Source: Candidatus Latescibacterota bacterium (GTDB lineage Bacteria; JAAXHH01; JABIQT01). From it: DNA of 6,352 nt. The notes under the pieces were generated by a model that saw nothing but the letters and a program-made list of their open reading frames with translations, was not told where the DNA came from and searched no databases. Both the position numbers and the translations under genes were made by a program. The stretch lies in the NCBI GenBank assembly GCA_018667995.1, contig JABIQT010000382.1, positions 1-6,352 of the forward strand. Reading direction: 5' to 3'. Positions 3-6,352 of this stretch are shown piece after piece. Numbering within the stretch: position 1 is the stretch's first letter; every line of letters begins with the position of its first letter.

Positions 3-1043
3 GGGCTGTCCGAGCAGGTGGTCACAGTCGGCCTGACAGTATTCCCCTTCGCGCTGCCCGACTCCGCCCCGACGCGAACGGCGTTTGGAATAGGGACCGA
101 ACAGCTGAGCCAGTGGCATGGTGTGCCAACCGGTACGCCCGAATTTGAAGCGCTCTACGATAGGTATTACTGGTTCCTCGTGGATCGGCTCATATCACCA
201 CAGCATCTTCCCGTTCCCCTCGACCCAAACCGCATGGCTCCTTATCTGAATGATCCGAGGGTATCTGGTGTTCTGATGCCGTACTCCGACGACGCCACAG
301 TCCTTGGTCAGACCATTCAGATGTATAAAGACCATGGATGGATGGACAAGGCTTACCTGTATCCCGTCGATGAGCCTTACGGAAAAGCCCAATACGACAG
401 ACTCACCGACGCGGCAGGGAAGATACACACTATAGATTCGAGCGCGAAGGTCATCTGTCCCTACTACAGAAACCCCGAATTTGCAGAGGATGAGCTGGCA
501 ATCAAGCACCTTACCGGATCGGTTGATATCTGGTGTGCCCTGACCTCCTACTATCACCCGGAGGAACTCCGGGAACGTATTGCCGCGGGTGACAACGTGT
601 GGTGGTACACCTGCTGTGTCCCCATCGAGCCGTACCCCAATTTTCAGATCCAGATGCCGCCCATCGACCACAGGATTCTGTTCTGGCAGATGCACCATTT
701 CGACATAGAAGGTTTCCTCTACTGGAGCGTCAATACGTGGACTGATGATCCGTACAAGGAACTTCCGGCTATGTGGTTAGAGTCGCGACAAAGAGATTCA
801 ATCAGCGACGGACATCTGCTGTATCCAGGACCAGACGGGCCGGTTTCGTCCATCCGTCTTGAATTAATCCGCGAGGGTTTGGAAGATCTGCAGTATCTCA
901 AGCTGCTTGAAGACATGGCTGGCCCCGGGGAGGCGAAGCGCTTCGTCCAACGGCTGGTGGGTGGGACAACCTTCTATGAGAGAGATCCACGGGAGTTGAT
1001 GAAGGTGCGTTCACAGCTCGCCAGACGAATTTGTGAAGGCTGA
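3..1043 (+). CDS. DUF4091 (GH123-like) glycoside hydrolase family protein, 5'-truncated
   Basis: This is the C-terminal 346 codons of a larger protein. The frame is open to the left edge (codons from position 3 read GLSEQ), so the GTG at 18 is almost certainly internal. Numbering from that GTG, the N-terminal residues (VGLTVFPFALPDSAP) look like the end of the beta-sandwich domain that precedes the barrel in DUF4091 proteins. The barrel carries a Y-P-V-D-E-P segment with Asp118-Glu119 (codons 369-374), matching the Asp-Glu pair used in substrate-assisted catalysis by GH123 beta-N-acetylgalactosaminidases. Trp/Tyr-rich strands follow (VWWYTCC at 194-200, GFLYWSVNTW at 232-241). The family's C-terminal signature is at about 265-297 (YPGPDGP, SSIRLELIREGLEDLQYL). 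The family is known or suspected to cleave glycosides, usually extracytoplasmically; any signal peptide lies outside the window. The real substrate is unknown. A 185-nt gap separates it from the next gene, so co-transcription is possible but not shown. Family call is fairly sure; activity is inferred. Confidence 0.85.
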   Translation, partial: GLSEQVVTVGLTVFPFALPDSAPTRTAFGIGTEQLSQWHGVPTGTPEFEALYDRYYWFLVDRLISPQHLPVPLDPNRMAPYLNDPRVSGVLMPYSDDATVLGQTIQMYKDHGWMDKAYLYPVDEPYGKAQYDRLTDAAGKIHTIDSSAKVICPYYRNPEFAEDELAIKHLTGSVDIWCALTSYYHPEELRERIAAGDNVWWYTCCVPIEPYPNFQIQMPPIDHRILFWQMHHFDIEGFLYWSVNTWTDDPYKELPAMWLESRQRDSISDGHLLYPGPDGPVSSIRLELIREGLEDLQYLKLLEDMAGPGEAKRFVQRLVGGTTFYERDPRELMKVRSQLARRICEG

Positions 1044-1228: not shown

Positions 1229-2284
1229 ATGATCAATGAACGCGACAATCTTCTGAAGGTCGTCCGGTTCGAAACGCCAGAATACATACCGATGCACTTC
1301 CACATAAACCCGGCCTGCTGGCACCACTATCCGCCGGACGCCCTGGCGGAACTCATGGAGGCCCACCCGCTTCTTTTTCCAGGATTCGACGCCGCGTCGG
1401 AAACGGTTCCCCATTCTCCCGGGTCTGGGAATCGAGCAGGCGAAGCCTACGAAGACGCTTGGGGATGCGTGTGGGAAACAACTGATGACGGCATAACGGG
1501 GGTGGTCACACAACATCCGCTCAAGGACTGGAGCGAATACGAAGCCTACGCCGCCGACCATCCTCGTGCAGACGAAACCACCGGTGCCGACTCCCAGACA
1601 CGAATTGAGCAAGCTTTCGCGGCAGCGGCTGCGGAGGGTAGGATGAAGCGTGGTGGACTACCGCATGGCCACACGTTTCTTACTCTCTCCTATATCCGGG
1701 GATATGAGAATCTCATCTTTGACATGACCGACAGAGAGCCACAGCTGATGGACCTGATCAGTCTGATAGAAGACTACAATATGTCCATCGTTCATCGAAA
1801 TATAGAAGCAGGCGCGGAGTGGATGGGGTATCCGGAAGATCTCGGGATGCAGGTGGGGCCAATGCTTGCACCTGCTGACTTCCGCGAGTATATGAAACCT
1901 TCTCTGCAGCGGCTGGTCGCGCCTGCCAGGGACGCTGGATGCATTATTCATATGCACTCAGATGGCGATATCCGTGACCTCGTGGACGATCTCGTGGACG
2001 GCGGCGTACAAGTCTTGAACCTCCAGGACCTCGTTAATGGTATCGACTGGATACAGAAGCGTCTGGCTGGAAAGATCTGCATCGACCTGGACATCGACAG
2101 GCAGCGGGTCACTCGATTCGGGACGCCGGCCCAGATCGATGACCTCATCCGCGAGGAGGTGGAGAAGCTTGGTAGTCGTGAAGGTGGACTGATGACGATC
2201 TACGGTCTGTATCCCGGTGTTCCATTGGAGAACGTCAAGGCACTGATGGACGCGATGGAAAGATATACGGGATACTATTCTTAA
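1229..2284 (+). CDS. URO-D superfamily protein 1 (MtaA/CmuA-like methyltransferase fold), H-x-H type
   Basis: A 351-residue cytoplasmic (no signal or membrane segment) protein of the uroporphyrinogen decarboxylase superfamily, covering essentially the whole TIM-barrel domain. Family marks in order: N-terminal R-D-N-L-L-K-V-V-R-F-E-T-P-E-Y-I-P (5-21); D-A-W-G-C-V-W (76-82) leading into G-V-V-T-Q-H-P-L-K-D-W (91-101); E-D-L-G-M-Q (203-208) before a P-x-D-F-R-E-Y-x-x-P helix (215-224); I-H-M-H-S-D-G-D-I (240-248); V-L-N-L-Q-D-L-V-N-G-I (262-272); and Y-P-G-V-P-L-E-N-V (328-336) near the C-terminus. The RQAGRY region of true HemE is absent, so heme synthesis is unlikely. H241 and H243 occupy the place of the H-x-C zinc ligands of MtaA/MtbA, and Tyr325 stands where their third ligand, Cys, would align. 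Proteins of this subtype are common in uncultured bacteria and have no established reaction that I know of. First of four tandem paralogues; 39 nt to the next gene. Fold is confident; a methyl-transfer role is inference. Confidence 0.9.
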   Translation: MINERDNLLKVVRFETPEYIPMHFHINPACWHHYPPDALAELMEAHPLLFPGFDAASETVPHSPGSGNRAGEAYEDAWGCVWETTDDGITGVVTQHPLKDWSEYEAYAADHPRADETTGADSQTRIEQAFAAAAAEGRMKRGGLPHGHTFLTLSYIRGYENLIFDMTDREPQLMDLISLIEDYNMSIVHRNIEAGAEWMGYPEDLGMQVGPMLAPADFREYMKPSLQRLVAPARDAGCIIHMHSDGDIRDLVDDLVDGGVQVLNLQDLVNGIDWIQKRLAGKICIDLDIDRQRVTRFGTPAQIDDLIREEVEKLGSREGGLMTIYGLYPGVPLENVKALMDAMERYTGYYS

Positions 2285-2312
2285 ACAGGTGTAGGCTCAG
2301 GAGAAAGCGCCG

Positions 2313-2318
2313 AAGGAG
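2313..2318 (+). promoter_or_regulatory. Ribosome binding site for the gene at 2324
   Basis: AAGGAG lies 5 nt before the ATG at 2324, inside the 39-nt spacer after the preceding stop. The strong site and short spacer suggest translation from a shared transcript; no promoter is evident in the spacer. Confidence 0.7.
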
Positions 2319-2323
2319 AAGCT

Positions 2324-3394
2324 ATGAACTGCGCTGAGAGAATCGATGCCGTCTTTTCCGGAGACATGGTAGATACTGTACCATTTGCGCTCAAGGGGTG
2401 GCGTATTCCGCAGTGCGAGGCGGAGCGCGAGTTAAGGAATGCCGGTCTGTGCGTGATCGATTCGAGATCGGTCTACTCATCGTCCAGTCCCAACACTGAA
2501 ACGGATGTGCTACACTTCACCAGGCAGGGCGTATCGTATCAGAAACGTACCGTTAGAACGCCGGTAGGTGTTCTGACATCCCTAACGCGAGAAGTAGCAA
2601 CGGACCAGACAGAGCGCACCACGTGGCGTGTGGAGATGCCGTTCAAAACTCCACAAGACTACGATGCCGTAGAATTCATGATACGCGACAGAATACACGT
2701 CCCTGCCTACGACAACTTTCTCAAGGCCCAGAGACAAATGGGCGGCGACGCGTTCTTCAAAACAAGTACACCCGGCGCTCCGATTCACACGATAATGTAT
2801 GAGATAATGGGTTTGGAGACCTTCAGCATTGAGTGGGCCGAACGGAGAGACCGCGTACTTGCCTTGAACGATGCCATAGCAGAGAACCAGCGTGAGATCT
2901 TCGCCATAGTGGCAAAGTCGCCCGCCAACGTAGTGCAGTGTGGTGGCAATTACGCGGCGGAAGTATTGGGAAGAGAGCGGCTTATAGAGCTGGTGCTACC
3001 CCATTGGGAAGAAGTGTGCGACGTGTTGCACGCGGGGGGCAAAATGGTGGGGTCGCATCTGGACGCCAACAACAGACTGTGGGCGAAGGAGATCGGTAAT
3101 TCGAAACTGGACTGGATCGAGGCGTTCACGCCGGCCCCCGACACAGACATGTCTATGGCCGACGCTCGGAAGATGTGGCCGGGAAAGGTCCTCTTTATCA
3201 ACTTCCCCTCGTCCCTCCATATAGAGAGCGTACCCACAATAGAAGCAGCGACAAAACAGATCCTGCTCGAATCGGCCCCCGGCGATAGACTTATCATCGG
3301 CATTACGGAGAACGTTCCGGAAAACCGGTGGAGGGAGAGCTTTCGGGCTATTCTGGAGACCGCCCGTATCCACGGGAAGCTACCCCTCGGATAG
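2324..3394 (+). CDS. URO-D superfamily protein 2, H-x-D type
   Basis: A 356-residue soluble protein with the URO-D barrel layout, but clearly diverged from its neighbours. It opens with R-I-D-A-V-F-S-G-D-M-V-D-T-V-P-F (6-21), the usual 'gene-start helix plus D-x-V-P' pattern. A strand pair at about 74-110 contains R-T-P-V-G-V-L-T (78-85) and ends in the M-P-F-K-T-P-Q-D-Y (105-113) segment that corresponds to the H-P-L-x-D of protein 1. The active-site strand reads M-V-G-S-H-L-D-A-N-N-R (241-251), so H245 is kept while the zinc-ligand Cys of MtaA-type enzymes is Asp247. It is followed by L-D-W-I-E-A-F-T-P-A-P-D-T-D-M-S (262-277) and the strand F-I-N-F-P-S-S-L-H-I (291-300). I recognise this as a URO-D-like subfamily often annotated only by domain. 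The RQAGRY signature of HemE is lacking. Substrate and reaction are unknown; a methyltransferase or a lyase/decarboxylase role are both possible. The C-terminal I-T-E-N-V-P-E-N-R-W (327-336) aligns loosely with the P-L-E-N region of the others. Confidence 0.85.
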   Translation: MNCAERIDAVFSGDMVDTVPFALKGWRIPQCEAERELRNAGLCVIDSRSVYSSSSPNTETDVLHFTRQGVSYQKRTVRTPVGVLTSLTREVATDQTERTTWRVEMPFKTPQDYDAVEFMIRDRIHVPAYDNFLKAQRQMGGDAFFKTSTPGAPIHTIMYEIMGLETFSIEWAERRDRVLALNDAIAENQREIFAIVAKSPANVVQCGGNYAAEVLGRERLIELVLPHWEEVCDVLHAGGKMVGSHLDANNRLWAKEIGNSKLDWIEAFTPAPDTDMSMADARKMWPGKVLFINFPSSLHIESVPTIEAATKQILLESAPGDRLIIGITENVPENRWRESFRAILETARIHGKLPLG

Positions 3395-3438
3395 CTCACG
3401 GGGAATCGCCAACTCCCATTCGTGAGACGGCGTCTTGC

Positions 3439-3447
3439 GGAGGAGGA
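3439..3447 (+). promoter_or_regulatory. Strong Shine-Dalgarno fixing a GTG start at 3452
   Basis: GGAGGAGGA contains a perfect AGGAGG at 3441-3446, 5 nt before the GTG at 3452. A longer in-frame reading from GTG 3422 would add ten residues (MRRRLAEEED) that are simply the translated ribosome binding site and its flank. The family N-terminus T-S-R-E-R-I-L-T-A-L begins right after 3452. Confidence 0.85.
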
Positions 3448-3451
3448 AGAT

Positions 3452-4624
3452 GTGACTTCACGAGAACGTATTCTCACGGCTCTGCGGCACAAGGAGCCGG
3501 ATCGCGTACCCTATGACCTGTCGTCCACACCGGTGACGGGGATTCATGATGTCGCCTACAGGAACCTGCGAAAAGCCCTGGGACTACCGCCAACAGAACC
3601 CCATATCTGGCACCTGATGCAGCAGTTGGCCTGGGTCGAAGACGACGTGCACGAGGCAATGCAGACGGACGCAACCGGGTTGAGGCCCAAAGCCCCGTCC
3701 GCCTGGTCCCTGGAGATTGCCGAGGACGCCAGGTATTTCTACTACACGGACGAATGGAGTATAACCCGTCGGAAGCAACGGCAGGACGGTCACTACTTCG
3801 ACCTTTGTAAGTCACCCCTCTCGGAAGCGACAGCCGTGGCCGATATCGAACGCTTCCCGTTTCCCGATTCTGTGGATGAGGCCAGGTTCTCTGGAATGCG
3901 ACGGGCCGCGGAAGAGATTCGTGCTCAAGACCGGGCCCTGGTACTCGGCGGCATCTGTCCTGGTATGCTCGAGATGGGGCAGTGGCTTCGGGGATTCGAG
4001 AATTTCTACTGCGACCTGGCCGGAGATCGCCCGCTTGCTGAGGCATTGTGCGACAAGATCATCGAGCTCAAAATGCTGTATTGGACAAAGGCGTTGGGAG
4101 AGATCGGAGACCTCGTCGATGTGATTCAGGAGGGAGACGACTACGGTGGACAAAACGATTTGCTTATCTCGCCTCATCTATGGCGAGAACTATTCAAACC
4201 TCGCCTCGAAAAACTGATCGCCCACATCAAGAAGCTGGCACCACAGGCGTTTCTGTTCTTTCACGCCTGCGGCTGCGTGTACGAGGTGTTGCCCGATCTG
4301 ATCGAGGTAGGAGTGGATATCCTGAATCCAGTACAGGTCTCGGCAGCAAGAATGAACAGTCGTCAGCTGAAACGGGAATTCGGCGACGACCTGACATTTT
4401 GGGGAGGCGGCGTCGACACACAGCACGTCCTGCCGCAAGGAACCCCCCAACAGGTGCGCGATGAAGTGAGATGGCGGATAGACGACTTTGCCCCTGGTGG
4501 TGGGTTCGTGTTCAATACGGTGCACAATATCCAGGGGGACGTACCCGCGGAGAATATACTGGCAATGAGACAGGCGTTACGCGACTACGGCCAGTATCCG
4601 ATGGGACACCTGATGGACGCATAG
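3452..4624 (+). CDS. URO-D superfamily protein 3 (MtaA/CmuA-like methyltransferase fold), H-x-C type
   Basis: A 390-residue soluble protein (GTG start chosen by the AGGAGG site) and the most canonical of the four. N-terminus S-R-E-R-I-L-T-A-L-R-H-K-E-P-D-R-V-P (3-20) is the hallmark opening of MtaA/CmuA-like URO-D proteins. Next come Y-T-D-E-W-S-I (98-104) and Y-F-D-L-C-K-S-P-L-S (115-124), then D-I-E-R-F-P-F-P-D (131-139), E-G-D-D-Y-G-G-Q (227-234) with S-P-x-x-W-R-E-L-F-K-P (240-250), F-F-H-A-C-G-C-V (269-276), D-I-L-N-P-V-Q-V-S-A (289-298), F-W-G-G-G-V-D-T-Q (316-324) and P-A-E-N-I-L-A-M (365-372). H271 and C273 match two zinc ligands of corrinoid methyltransferases, and Cys275 lies close by. 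The third ligand Cys aligns with His358 in V-H-N-I-Q, so the site may be His-Cys-His. Known relatives demethylate methylated corrinoid proteins or methyl substrates; no corrinoid partner is encoded here. Methyltransferase activity is likely but unproven. It sits 16 nt upstream of the next gene. Confidence 0.92.
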   Translation: MTSRERILTALRHKEPDRVPYDLSSTPVTGIHDVAYRNLRKALGLPPTEPHIWHLMQQLAWVEDDVHEAMQTDATGLRPKAPSAWSLEIAEDARYFYYTDEWSITRRKQRQDGHYFDLCKSPLSEATAVADIERFPFPDSVDEARFSGMRRAAEEIRAQDRALVLGGICPGMLEMGQWLRGFENFYCDLAGDRPLAEALCDKIIELKMLYWTKALGEIGDLVDVIQEGDDYGGQNDLLISPHLWRELFKPRLEKLIAHIKKLAPQAFLFFHACGCVYEVLPDLIEVGVDILNPVQVSAARMNSRQLKREFGDDLTFWGGGVDTQHVLPQGTPQQVRDEVRWRIDDFAPGGGFVFNTVHNIQGDVPAENILAMRQALRDYGQYPMGHLMDA

Positions 4625-4631
4625 AGAGGGG
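4625..4631 (+). promoter_or_regulatory. Ribosome binding site for the gene at 4641
   Basis: AGAGGGG directly follows the TAG of the preceding gene and lies 9 nt before the ATG at 4641. With only 16 nt between the genes there is no room for a separate promoter, so these two are almost surely co-transcribed. Confidence 0.55.
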
Positions 4632-4640
4632 CTCCACTGT

Positions 4641-5672
4641 ATGAAACATAACGAAAGTACGGATGACTTACTCCGAAGGCACCGAAAATTCTGGGAAATG
4701 GACGATGTCGACAGCCCGCTGATGAGTGTCGGCCGCTATGTATCGCTGCAGAACCGCGATCCCATTCCGATGGCTAATGGAAAGCCCGTGCAGGACGGGG
4801 AAATTCTGCTCCCAGCCGCACTGCGGGCGATTCACCTCATGGAGCAATCGAACGCACCCGATGCAGTGGTGCAAGGAGATTTTATCCGTGGACGATCACC
4901 CTATGATCTATGCTGGACCGAGGCCATATCGGGGTGCCAGATCCGATGGCGTGCGGGACATATCTGGGCGGATCCGTTCATAGAGGATCTGAATGAAGTG
5001 GAACATCTGCAGGCGAACCCGGACAGCGAGTGGCTTTCCTTACTTCTGGAACTGACCCGGCTGCTTGCAGAGGCTGCAGATGGAGCATACCCGGTTACCC
5101 AGCCACTGATGCGAGGCCCGATTGATATCGCTTCGGCAATCGTTGGCGATGAGCCGCTCTGCTGGGAAATGGTGGATGAACCCAATCGTTTCCGCCTTCT
5201 GATGAGGGTTTCCACAGATCTCTTCATCACGATAGCTAAGGCTTGGCGCGATGCTGCTCCGTTGTTCGCGGGAGGATCGTGTCTCTACGGCATATGGGCA
5301 CCCGGAACTGCGGTCCGTATCCAGGCTGATAACGCCGCGCTGATGTCCCCTGGCACCTATCGTGACTTCCTGTTGCCGTGCGACGAGCGGATCTGTGCGG
5401 CCTTCGATTACCCATTGATGCACACGCACTCCGGAGTACTGCACATCATAGCGGACGCCTTGCTGGAGCTTGACGGTTTACGCGCCATTCAGGTCAGCCT
5501 TGACTATCCAGCCCCGCCTCCGATCAGCGAGTTGCTGCCGGTGCTGCAGAAGGTCAACGGGCGCAAACCCCTCATTATTACGGGATCAGTAACCCAGAGC
5601 GAACTGGACTCTCTGCTGGACGCGCTATCACCCGCCGGATTGTGCCTGCAGGTAGCCCTGCGAGACGGCTGA
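4641..5672 (+). CDS. URO-D superfamily protein 4, divergent H-x-H type
   Basis: A 343-residue soluble protein and the most diverged of the four. The N-terminal L-L-R-R-H-R-K-F-W-E-M-D-D-V-D-S-P-L (10-27) is the usual opening of the URO-D-like subfamily whose members start with an R-x-x-x-F-W segment, which supports the ATG at 4641. Later features: W-T-E-A-I-S-G-C (92-99) and the strand leading to W-A-D-P-F (109-113), a long helix at about 130-148, Y-G-I-W-A-P-G-T (216-223), R-I-Q-A-D-N-A-A-L-M-S-P-G-T-Y-R-D-F (226-243), and the active-site strand L-M-H-T-H-S-G-V-L-H-I (259-269). H261 and H263 replace the His and Cys zinc ligands of MtaA-like enzymes. The protein ends soon after I-T-G-S-V-T-Q (313-319) and C-L-Q-V-A-L (335-340), without the P-x-E-N tail seen in proteins 1 and 3. 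No reaction is known to me for this subtype. It is the last gene of the apparent operon; no clear terminator follows. Confidence 0.85.
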   Translation: MKHNESTDDLLRRHRKFWEMDDVDSPLMSVGRYVSLQNRDPIPMANGKPVQDGEILLPAALRAIHLMEQSNAPDAVVQGDFIRGRSPYDLCWTEAISGCQIRWRAGHIWADPFIEDLNEVEHLQANPDSEWLSLLLELTRLLAEAADGAYPVTQPLMRGPIDIASAIVGDEPLCWEMVDEPNRFRLLMRVSTDLFITIAKAWRDAAPLFAGGSCLYGIWAPGTAVRIQADNAALMSPGTYRDFLLPCDERICAAFDYPLMHTHSGVLHIIADALLELDGLRAIQVSLDYPAPPPISELLPVLQKVNGRKPLIITGSVTQSELDSLLDALSPAGLCLQVALRDG

Positions 5673-6352
5673 TCAGACCGAGTGAACGGGCTGCGATCTC
5701 TTCCACCGCCTGAAATAGCCGAGTACTCAGAATTTAGGTGTCTGCCGGTGACGTTGCAGCATTCAGCGCTGTCACCTGTGTAACTCTCGGTCTCGGACAT
5801 TTGATGCCGCCAAGCACGCTCCGGTACCATTTCCGGACATAACCTGTCGCGATGCTCATTGAGGCAGGAACATGCGACATCGTGACCATCGTGCTGAAGT
5901 GCGTCGGAAGATATCCAAGACCAGAGGAAGGCCTGTGGAGACCATCGCATAGCTCCCGACGTTCAAGGCAGGCCGGTTGCCGATGACCTTAAATTCGATC
6001 CGCAGGATCTTCGGTTAATCGTATGGTTTCCTACCCCCGTCCCCAATTTCGAACACGTTCAGGATTCGCTATGTTGACATTCATTGTATATTGCCCTGTG
6101 CTGTAATGCATCGGGCAGGTCTAAGAGACGACACCGTCGTAAACAGGCATGCGCCACGGTGATTATTGGGACAACGGGGGCTCTAAGTTACTGCATCATC
6201 CGTTAATACCTTGGGCGGCGATCTAACCACGCTGCGGGACAGAAAGATCGAACCAGGGAATACTTCTTCAGAGTATTCGAACCAGAGTATTTCGGCCTGG
6301 TCACCGATCCTGCCCGATGTGTGGCGAGAGCGAACACAGGTTGCCAGATTGC
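5673..6352. other. Gene-poor 3' flank with no convincing coding sequence
   Basis: Stops are frequent in all three + frames up to about 6226. A reverse-strand reading over 5504-5950 lies partly antisense to the preceding gene, is rich in Ser/Arg/Cys and resembles no family. A 57-codon open stretch ending at TGA 6071-6076 (reading about PVADDLKFDPQDLRLIVWF near 5970-6030) has no start codon and no recognisable domain. All three + frames are open over the last 120 or so bases, so a gene beginning or decaying past the right edge cannot be excluded, but no ribosome binding site plus start is seen. Small inverted repeats occur: GATCC-GCA-GGATC at 5997-6009, ACGAC-ACC-GTCGT at 6128-6140, and the 8-bp palindrome GAGTACTC at 5721-5728. 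No tRNA, rRNA or CRISPR pattern is visible. It may be a true intergenic region or a decayed gene. Confidence 0.6.
6248..6291. repeat. Short cluster of overlapping direct and inverted repeats
   Basis: TCGAACCAG occurs at 6248-6256 and again at 6277-6285. CAGAGTATT occurs at 6269-6277 and 6283-6291, a 14-bp period. GAATACT at 6258-6264 and AGTATTC at 6272-6278 form a perfect 7-bp inverted repeat around a 7-nt loop. The units interlock within 44 bp. The layout could be an operator for a regulator of a gene to the right of the window, or a remnant of local duplication; no promoter box is visible to decide between these. Confidence 0.5.

What the first reader, a model, noticed from the sequence alone, without database searches (positions are those of the whole stretch)
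1229..5672. Four tandem, mutually divergent URO-D-fold genes in one apparent operon
The sequence shows four consecutive same-strand genes with spacers of 39, 57 and 16 nt, each giving a 343-390 residue protein with URO-D superfamily landmarks. They share only scattered motifs, so they are not recent tandem duplicates but different subfamilies held together. Characterised family members work singly or paired with a corrinoid protein. A four-enzyme set suggests sequential or multi-substrate chemistry that I do not recognise as a described pathway.
Basis: partly seen in the sequence, partly recalled or inferred. Interest (0 to 1): 0.6.

Follow-up and report, generated by a model that had tools for sequence, protein, structure and literature searches.

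The report
Mosaic array of four URO-D-fold enzymes
An uncultured bacterium related to Latescibacterota carries about forty genes of the URO-D enzyme superfamily, often lined up in rows; this window holds one row of four very different members, probably methyl-group-removing enzymes that share helper proteins encoded elsewhere, in a combination found in none of the related genomes that were compared.

Summary
Four same-strand ORFs (1229-2284, 2324-3394, 3452-4624, 4641-5672; gaps 39, 57 and 16 nt) all encode URO-D-fold proteins. P1, P3 and P4 pass Pfam PF01208. P2 does not, but its predicted structure matches HemE and MtaA. The four fall in four separate supported clades, so they are not tandem duplicates.

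The reading of a conserved four-enzyme unit is not supported. P2 orthologs (59-67%) and the P4 ortholog (62%) lie in other neighbourhoods in related genomes, beside different URO-D genes or none. What is conserved is the clustering: this genome has about 40 URO-D ORFs, 32 of them adjacent to another, and a second array of five.

The best explanation is a reshuffled pool of substrate-specific methyltransferases of the OdmB/CdmB type that share one corrinoid protein, its activase and folate enzymes encoded elsewhere. The substrate is unknown; neighbours suggest glycan-derived compounds. Most copies, including P1, P2 and P4, lack the MtaA-type metal site, and URO-D genes far outnumber corrinoid proteins, so a non-corrinoid function stays open. 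A recurring link between URO-D arrays and glycyl radical enzymes is the most interesting side result.

The parts
1229..2284 (+). P1: URO-D-fold protein, 351 aa; motif H-S-D-G where MtaA has H-x-C-G; no third ligand (Tyr)
   Evidence: PF01208 1.7e-16; 41% relative in G276. An upstream TTG start (1112) is possible but lacks support.
2324..3394 (+). P2: divergent URO-D-fold protein, 356 aa; H245-x-D247 at the MtaA zinc position; orthologs in Latescibacterota and Omnitrophota MAGs
   Evidence: (no Pfam hit).
3452..4624 (+). P3: URO-D-fold protein, 390 aa, GTG start; keeps H-A-C-G and a C-terminal His (VHNIQ), the only one of the four with a plausible MtaA-like metal site
   Evidence: PF01208 2.6e-22; 50% relative in G042 in a sugar-type ABC operon. 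Alternative GTG start at 3422.
4641..5672 (+). P4: divergent URO-D-fold protein, 343 aa; H-T-H-S-G, lacks the C-terminal ligand segment
   Evidence: PF01208 9.2e-8; 62% ortholog in G001.
3..1043 (+). Upstream neighbour, GH123 catalytic-domain protein (5' end cut by the contig); 185 nt before P1, same strand. Context, probably not part of the array
   Evidence: PF13320 1e-29.
5673..6352 (.). Stretch without a convincing gene after P4: the array ends here
   Evidence: no terminator-like site found.

Best explanation
The array is one assortment out of a large, reshuffled pool of UroD-superfamily methyltransferases in this lineage. Each of P1-P4 is most likely a substrate-specific component I (methyl donor : corrinoid protein methyltransferase, as OdmB, VdmB and CdmB are). 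It binds its own methylated substrate in the TIM barrel and presents the methyl group to the Co(I) of a corrinoid protein encoded elsewhere. That corrinoid protein is shared by many URO-D proteins, re-reduced by a RACo-type activase, and passes the methyl group to tetrahydrofolate (pterin-binding methyltransferase, methylene-THF reductase) or homocysteine. Four different pockets in one operon would let the cell strip several methylated compounds, or several positions, that arrive together, probably glycan- or plant-derived. Shown: fold, divergence, operon-like layout, lack of order conservation, presence of the shared machinery in the genome. Inferred: corrinoid dependence, demethylation, shared hub, substrate class.
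For: URO-D fold of all four, and nearest solved sequences among methyltransferases (CdmB 1.4e-6, MtaA). The genome holds a corrinoid protein with adjacent URO-D and RACo (contig C106) and RACo-DUF1638-URO-D (C12). The G001 counterpart is a complete hub: corrinoid protein, RACo, DUF1638, two URO-D genes, homocysteine S-methyltransferase; one of its URO-D proteins is the ortholog of C12's. Pterin-binding and MTHFR genes lie beside URO-D genes in this genome (C129) and in G001 (C194, near a P2-like gene). Of 21 URO-D-rich genomes 20 keep a B12-binding_2 match, but only 1-4 each, while the seven of them counted have 5 to 28 URO-D matches; 12 of 30 such loci have a URO-D gene within 1.5 kb. In G055 a P2-like array lies about 8 kb from a corrinoid protein. 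CdmB shows that a URO-D component I can work without zinc (PMC13222342), which fits the lost ligands in P1, P2 and P4.
Against: There is no corrinoid protein or activase on this contig, and about 40 URO-D ORFs face one free-standing corrinoid protein, unlike known component I genes, which usually sit with their own. G198 (93% complete, ten URO-D genes seen) has no B12-binding_2 match at all. NCBIfam MtaA/CmuA scores are far below cut-off (37-46 against 235 bits). Neighbourhoods point to sugar catabolism rather than one-carbon metabolism.
Confidence: 0.5

Rival explanations
1. The array proteins are not corrinoid-dependent: the URO-D barrel has been reused for lyase, isomerase or decarboxylase-like chemistry on sugar-derived compounds, with different metal sites (H-x-D, H-x-H), working alongside glycosidases, sugar transporters and glycyl radical enzymes.
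For: About 40 URO-D ORFs to one corrinoid protein. Ligand replacement in most copies. GH123 beside the array, GH127-like, GH116 and GH2 genes near orthologs, sugar-type ABC operons around the closest P3 relatives, glycyl radical enzymes beside arrays. G198 lacks the corrinoid domain.
Against: Apart from HemE, the characterised members of the superfamily named in PMC10418091 are methyl or alkyl transferases; the shared machinery is present in nearly all URO-D-rich genomes.
Confidence: 0.3
2. The four form one sequential pathway or a hetero-oligomer (for example canonical/divergent pairs P1+P2 and P3+P4) that needs all members.
For: Operon-like spacing. P2-like and P4-like genes often directly adjoin a canonical URO-D gene in this genome and G001: C133, C595, C786, C231, C41, C194.
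Against: Partners differ from locus to locus. In wider genomes most P2-like and P4-like genes have no URO-D gene within 1.5 kb. P2 orthologs stand without an adjacent same-strand URO-D gene in L102, L103 and L104.
Confidence: 0.1
3. The array is a transient by-product of gene transfer and rearrangement; some copies are decaying and have no joint role.
For: No order conservation. P1 and P3 have their closest relatives in distant genomes. URO-D remnants with internal deletions lie in G001 (L088 12309-12656, 13814-14314).
Against: Intact ORFs with good ribosome-binding sites and strong purifying selection on P2 and P4; non-random clustering.
Confidence: 0.1

Closest known systems
UroD-family component I methyltransferases OdmB, VdmB, MtvB, MtoB and CdmB (acetogens, methoxydotrophic archaea)
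   Same: URO-D barrel; zinc not required in CdmB; many paralogs per genome in Acetobacterium; CdmB is the best PDB sequence match of the P2 and P4 profiles.
   Different: Those genes sit with their own corrinoid protein and methyltransferase II; here four sit together with none.
Type 1 mlp gene clusters (Mlp1/2/3 + corrinoid protein + Ram; PMC10418091)
   Same: Several mutually divergent UroD-family genes in one same-strand cluster, with no conserved synteny.
   Different: No corrinoid protein or activase in this contig; the proteins score far below the MtaA/CmuA subfamily cut-off.
Soluble coenzyme M methyltransferases MtaA/MtbA and CmuA
   Same: Fold; P3 keeps H-x-C-G and has His at the third ligand position.
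   Different: P1, P2 and P4 lack the H-x-C...C zinc site; scores 37-46 bits against a 235-bit cut-off for P1, P3 and P4, none for P2.
HemE uroporphyrinogen decarboxylase
   Same: Fold (Z about 18-22).
   Different: The genome has its own HemE (C1154, 434 bits); P1-P4 do not reach the hemE model cut-off.

Membership tests
URO-D superfamily (PF01208 / URO-D fold) | Pfam match over gathering score | tested here: met
   P1, P3 and P4 yes; P2 no, and P2 is included on profile and fold.
URO-D superfamily (PF01208 / URO-D fold) | URO-D TIM-barrel fold | tested here: met
   P2 Z 22.5/21.2, P4 Z 18.4/18.3 with a moderate-confidence model; P1 and P3 by sequence only.
HemE | NCBIfam TIGR01464 over 303 bits | tested here: not met
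   P1 17 bits, the others not listed.
MtaA/CmuA (SCMT) subfamily | TIGR01463 over 235 bits | tested here: not met
   42, 46 and 37 bits for P1, P3, P4; none for P2.
MtaA/CmuA (SCMT) subfamily | H-x-C...C zinc site | tested here: not met
   P1 HSD/Tyr, P2 HLD, P4 HTH; P3 HAC/His is a partial match.
Type 1 mlp gene cluster | Corrinoid protein and Ram in the same cluster within 2 kb | tested here: not met
   None in the 6,352-base contig; the only free-standing corrinoid protein found in the genome is on contig C106. The contig ends 1.2 kb before and 0.7 kb after the array, so the 2-kb rule is tested only that far.
Corrinoid-dependent component I methyltransferase (OdmB/CdmB type) | Methyl transfer from a donor to a Co(I) corrinoid protein | not testable with these tools
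   Needs enzymology.
Corrinoid-dependent component I methyltransferase (OdmB/CdmB type) | Corrinoid protein and activase available in the cell | tested here: met
   One corrinoid protein and two RACo matches in the genome; the G001 hub is complete.

The most novel reading that the evidence does not exclude
URO-D arrays and glycyl radical enzymes form an undescribed anaerobic route for glycan-derived, perhaps O-methylated, compounds: P4-like and other URO-D proteins, with unusual H-x-D or H-x-H sites, act together with an eliminase-type glycyl radical enzyme encoded next to them.
Probability: 0.18. Interest if true: 0.7.

Novelty: new variant of a known kind. Interest (0 to 1): 0.42.

Why it matters
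The UroD superfamily covers haem synthesis, methionine synthesis and anaerobic demethylation of ethers, thiols and haloalkanes, but most of its sequence space is uncharacterised. Genomes with 20-40 members in arrays, and only one or a few corrinoid proteins, suggest either a many-to-one methyl-transfer hub or a large non-corrinoid branch. Either answer would change how metagenomic 'uroporphyrinogen decarboxylase' annotations are read. P1-P4 with the C106 corrinoid protein make that choice testable.

Tried and rejected
Recent tandem duplication: rejected, four separate clades. Conserved four-gene module: rejected by neighbourhoods of P2 and P4 orthologs and of relatives of P1 and P3. Obligatory canonical/divergent URO-D pairs: suggested by this genome and G001, but not upheld in wider genomes. 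P2 outside the fold, because Pfam gave nothing: rejected. Membership in mlp clusters: rejected. HemE duplication: rejected, HemE is separate. Promoter and terminator scan gave nothing above chance. A weak match of P3 to designed TPR repeats in the PDB (25.5 bits summed over five repeats of about 6 bits) is a chance match. Searches for papers on Latescibacterota with UroD or demethylation, on a glycyl radical enzyme working with UroD proteins, and on corrinoid demethylation of methylated sugars found nothing relevant in the held library.

Full report
What is there. The window is a whole contig (G000:C1060) of a 6.06 Mb, 85% complete assembly in 1,165 contigs. Four same-strand ORFs follow a GH123-type gene: P1 1229-2284, P2 2324-3394, P3 3452-4624, P4 4641-5672, with gaps of 39, 57 and 16 nt. 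P2 and P3 have clear ribosome-binding sites; P2 and P4 are under purifying selection (dN about 0.25-0.32, dS saturated or above 2). After P4 there are 680 bases without a convincing gene.

Fold. P1, P3 and P4 pass PF01208; P2 has no Pfam or NCBIfam match. A profile of P2 relatives finds CdmB (1.4e-6), MtaA and human UroD in the PDB. The AlphaFold2 model of P2 (pLDDT 87.8, pTM 0.86) aligns to UroD at Z 22.5 and MtaA at 21.2, then MetE at 12-15, with other barrels below 13. P4's model is less sure (pLDDT 69.4) but gives Z 18.4 and 18.3 against 9-10 for other barrels. P1 and P3 were not modelled; their sequence matches suffice. All four are therefore URO-D superfamily.

Divergence. Only P1-P3 gives a clear BLASTP alignment (26%). 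In a tree of 78 URO-D proteins (quick method, SH-aLRT support only) each sits in its own supported clade with closer relatives elsewhere: P2 with orthologs in Latescibacterota, an Omnitrophota MAG and others (59-67%); P3 with a 50% relative in G042; P4 with a 62% ortholog in G001; P1 with relatives of 34-41% in G276 and G296.

Setting. The lineage is inferred to be near Latescibacterota: the nearest relative, G001, has a contig identical in length and match to one of a named Candidatus Latescibacterota MAG. This genome has 33 PF01208 matches and 40 URO-D-type ORFs by a local profile, of which 32 adjoin another: 22 adjacent pairs against 0.4 expected by chance. Contig C1067 holds five URO-D-type genes in a row. 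Most sampled bacteria have 0-2 PF01208 matches, while six of the other 58 searched have 5-25 (G001, G039, G042, G047, G053, G055).

Order. The order P1-P4 was found nowhere else. In G001 the P2 ortholog lies between a GH127-like gene and an alcohol dehydrogenase, and the P4 ortholog follows a different URO-D gene. In the unnamed MAG contig L106, the gene just before the P2 ortholog is a close relative of a C1067 gene of this genome, and the next URO-D gene after it is a close relative of one on C810: same pool, different hands. Only L103 and L104, two close Latescibacterota contigs, share an arrangement. So clustering is conserved, order is not.

Mechanism. The genome has a corrinoid protein with adjacent URO-D and RACo genes (C106) and RACo-DUF1638-URO-D (C12). 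G001 shows a full hub: corrinoid protein, RACo, DUF1638, two URO-D genes and a homocysteine S-methyltransferase. MTHFR and pterin-binding genes lie near URO-D genes in both genomes. Twenty of 21 URO-D-rich genomes keep 1-4 corrinoid-domain matches (some are MetH-like long proteins); G198 has none; 12 of 30 such loci have a URO-D gene within 1.5 kb. I therefore favour many substrate-specific component I proteins serving one corrinoid protein in trans, at 0.5. CdmB is a precedent for zinc-free catalysis in this fold (PMC13222342). Only P3 keeps a plausible MtaA-like metal site (HAC...H); P1 has HSD, P2 HLD, P4 HTH (alignment-based). The main rival is non-corrinoid chemistry on sugar-derived substrates (0.3), which the glycosidase, ABC-transporter and glycyl-radical neighbours favour.

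Side result. Glycyl radical enzyme genes adjoin URO-D genes on C595 and C1067 of this genome, C231 of G001, and C43 and C3 of G296. For this genome alone, two of four such genes near URO-D genes has a probability of about 0.014 by chance; the other two contigs are too short to judge. The one paper that mentions both terms is a proteome survey that was not read further.

Verdict. True observation, but the conserved-pathway reading is not supported; a new variant of a known kind, of moderate interest.

Noticed in passing
G000 contigs C595 (L071) and C1067 (L059); L088:9153-12355; L216; L225: Glycyl radical enzymes (PFL-like plus Gly_radical) directly beside URO-D arrays; in L071 and L088 beside P4-family genes, in L088 with an activase.
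   Followed up: partly
L088:12309-12656 and 13814-14314 (G001:C231): Two short ORFs that look like URO-D genes with internal deletions; the second has a C-terminal part 57% identical to P3. Decayed copies or assembly errors.
   Followed up: no
L059:3873-5105, L060:2580-3842, L064:677-1945, L067:3561-4754: A group of 400-420 aa proteins with a YGCC motif at the HxCG position, found in the URO-D arrays; below the PF01208 cut-off, perhaps an undescribed branch.
   Followed up: partly
L089 and L098 (G042): The closest P3 relatives (45-50%) stand in operons with sugar-type ABC transporter genes, one also with a LacI-type regulator: a clue to a carbohydrate-like substrate.
   Followed up: partly
L186 (G001:C245): Compact hub of corrinoid protein, RACo, DUF1638, two URO-D genes and a homocysteine S-methyltransferase; one URO-D protein is orthologous to that of contig C12 of the window's genome.
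   Followed up: yes
G198: A 93% complete genome with ten URO-D genes seen but no B12-binding_2 match.
   Followed up: no
window 3-1043: GH123 catalytic-domain gene just before the array; glycosidase-type genes (GH127-like, GH116, GH2) also lie near URO-D genes in G001.
   Followed up: partly
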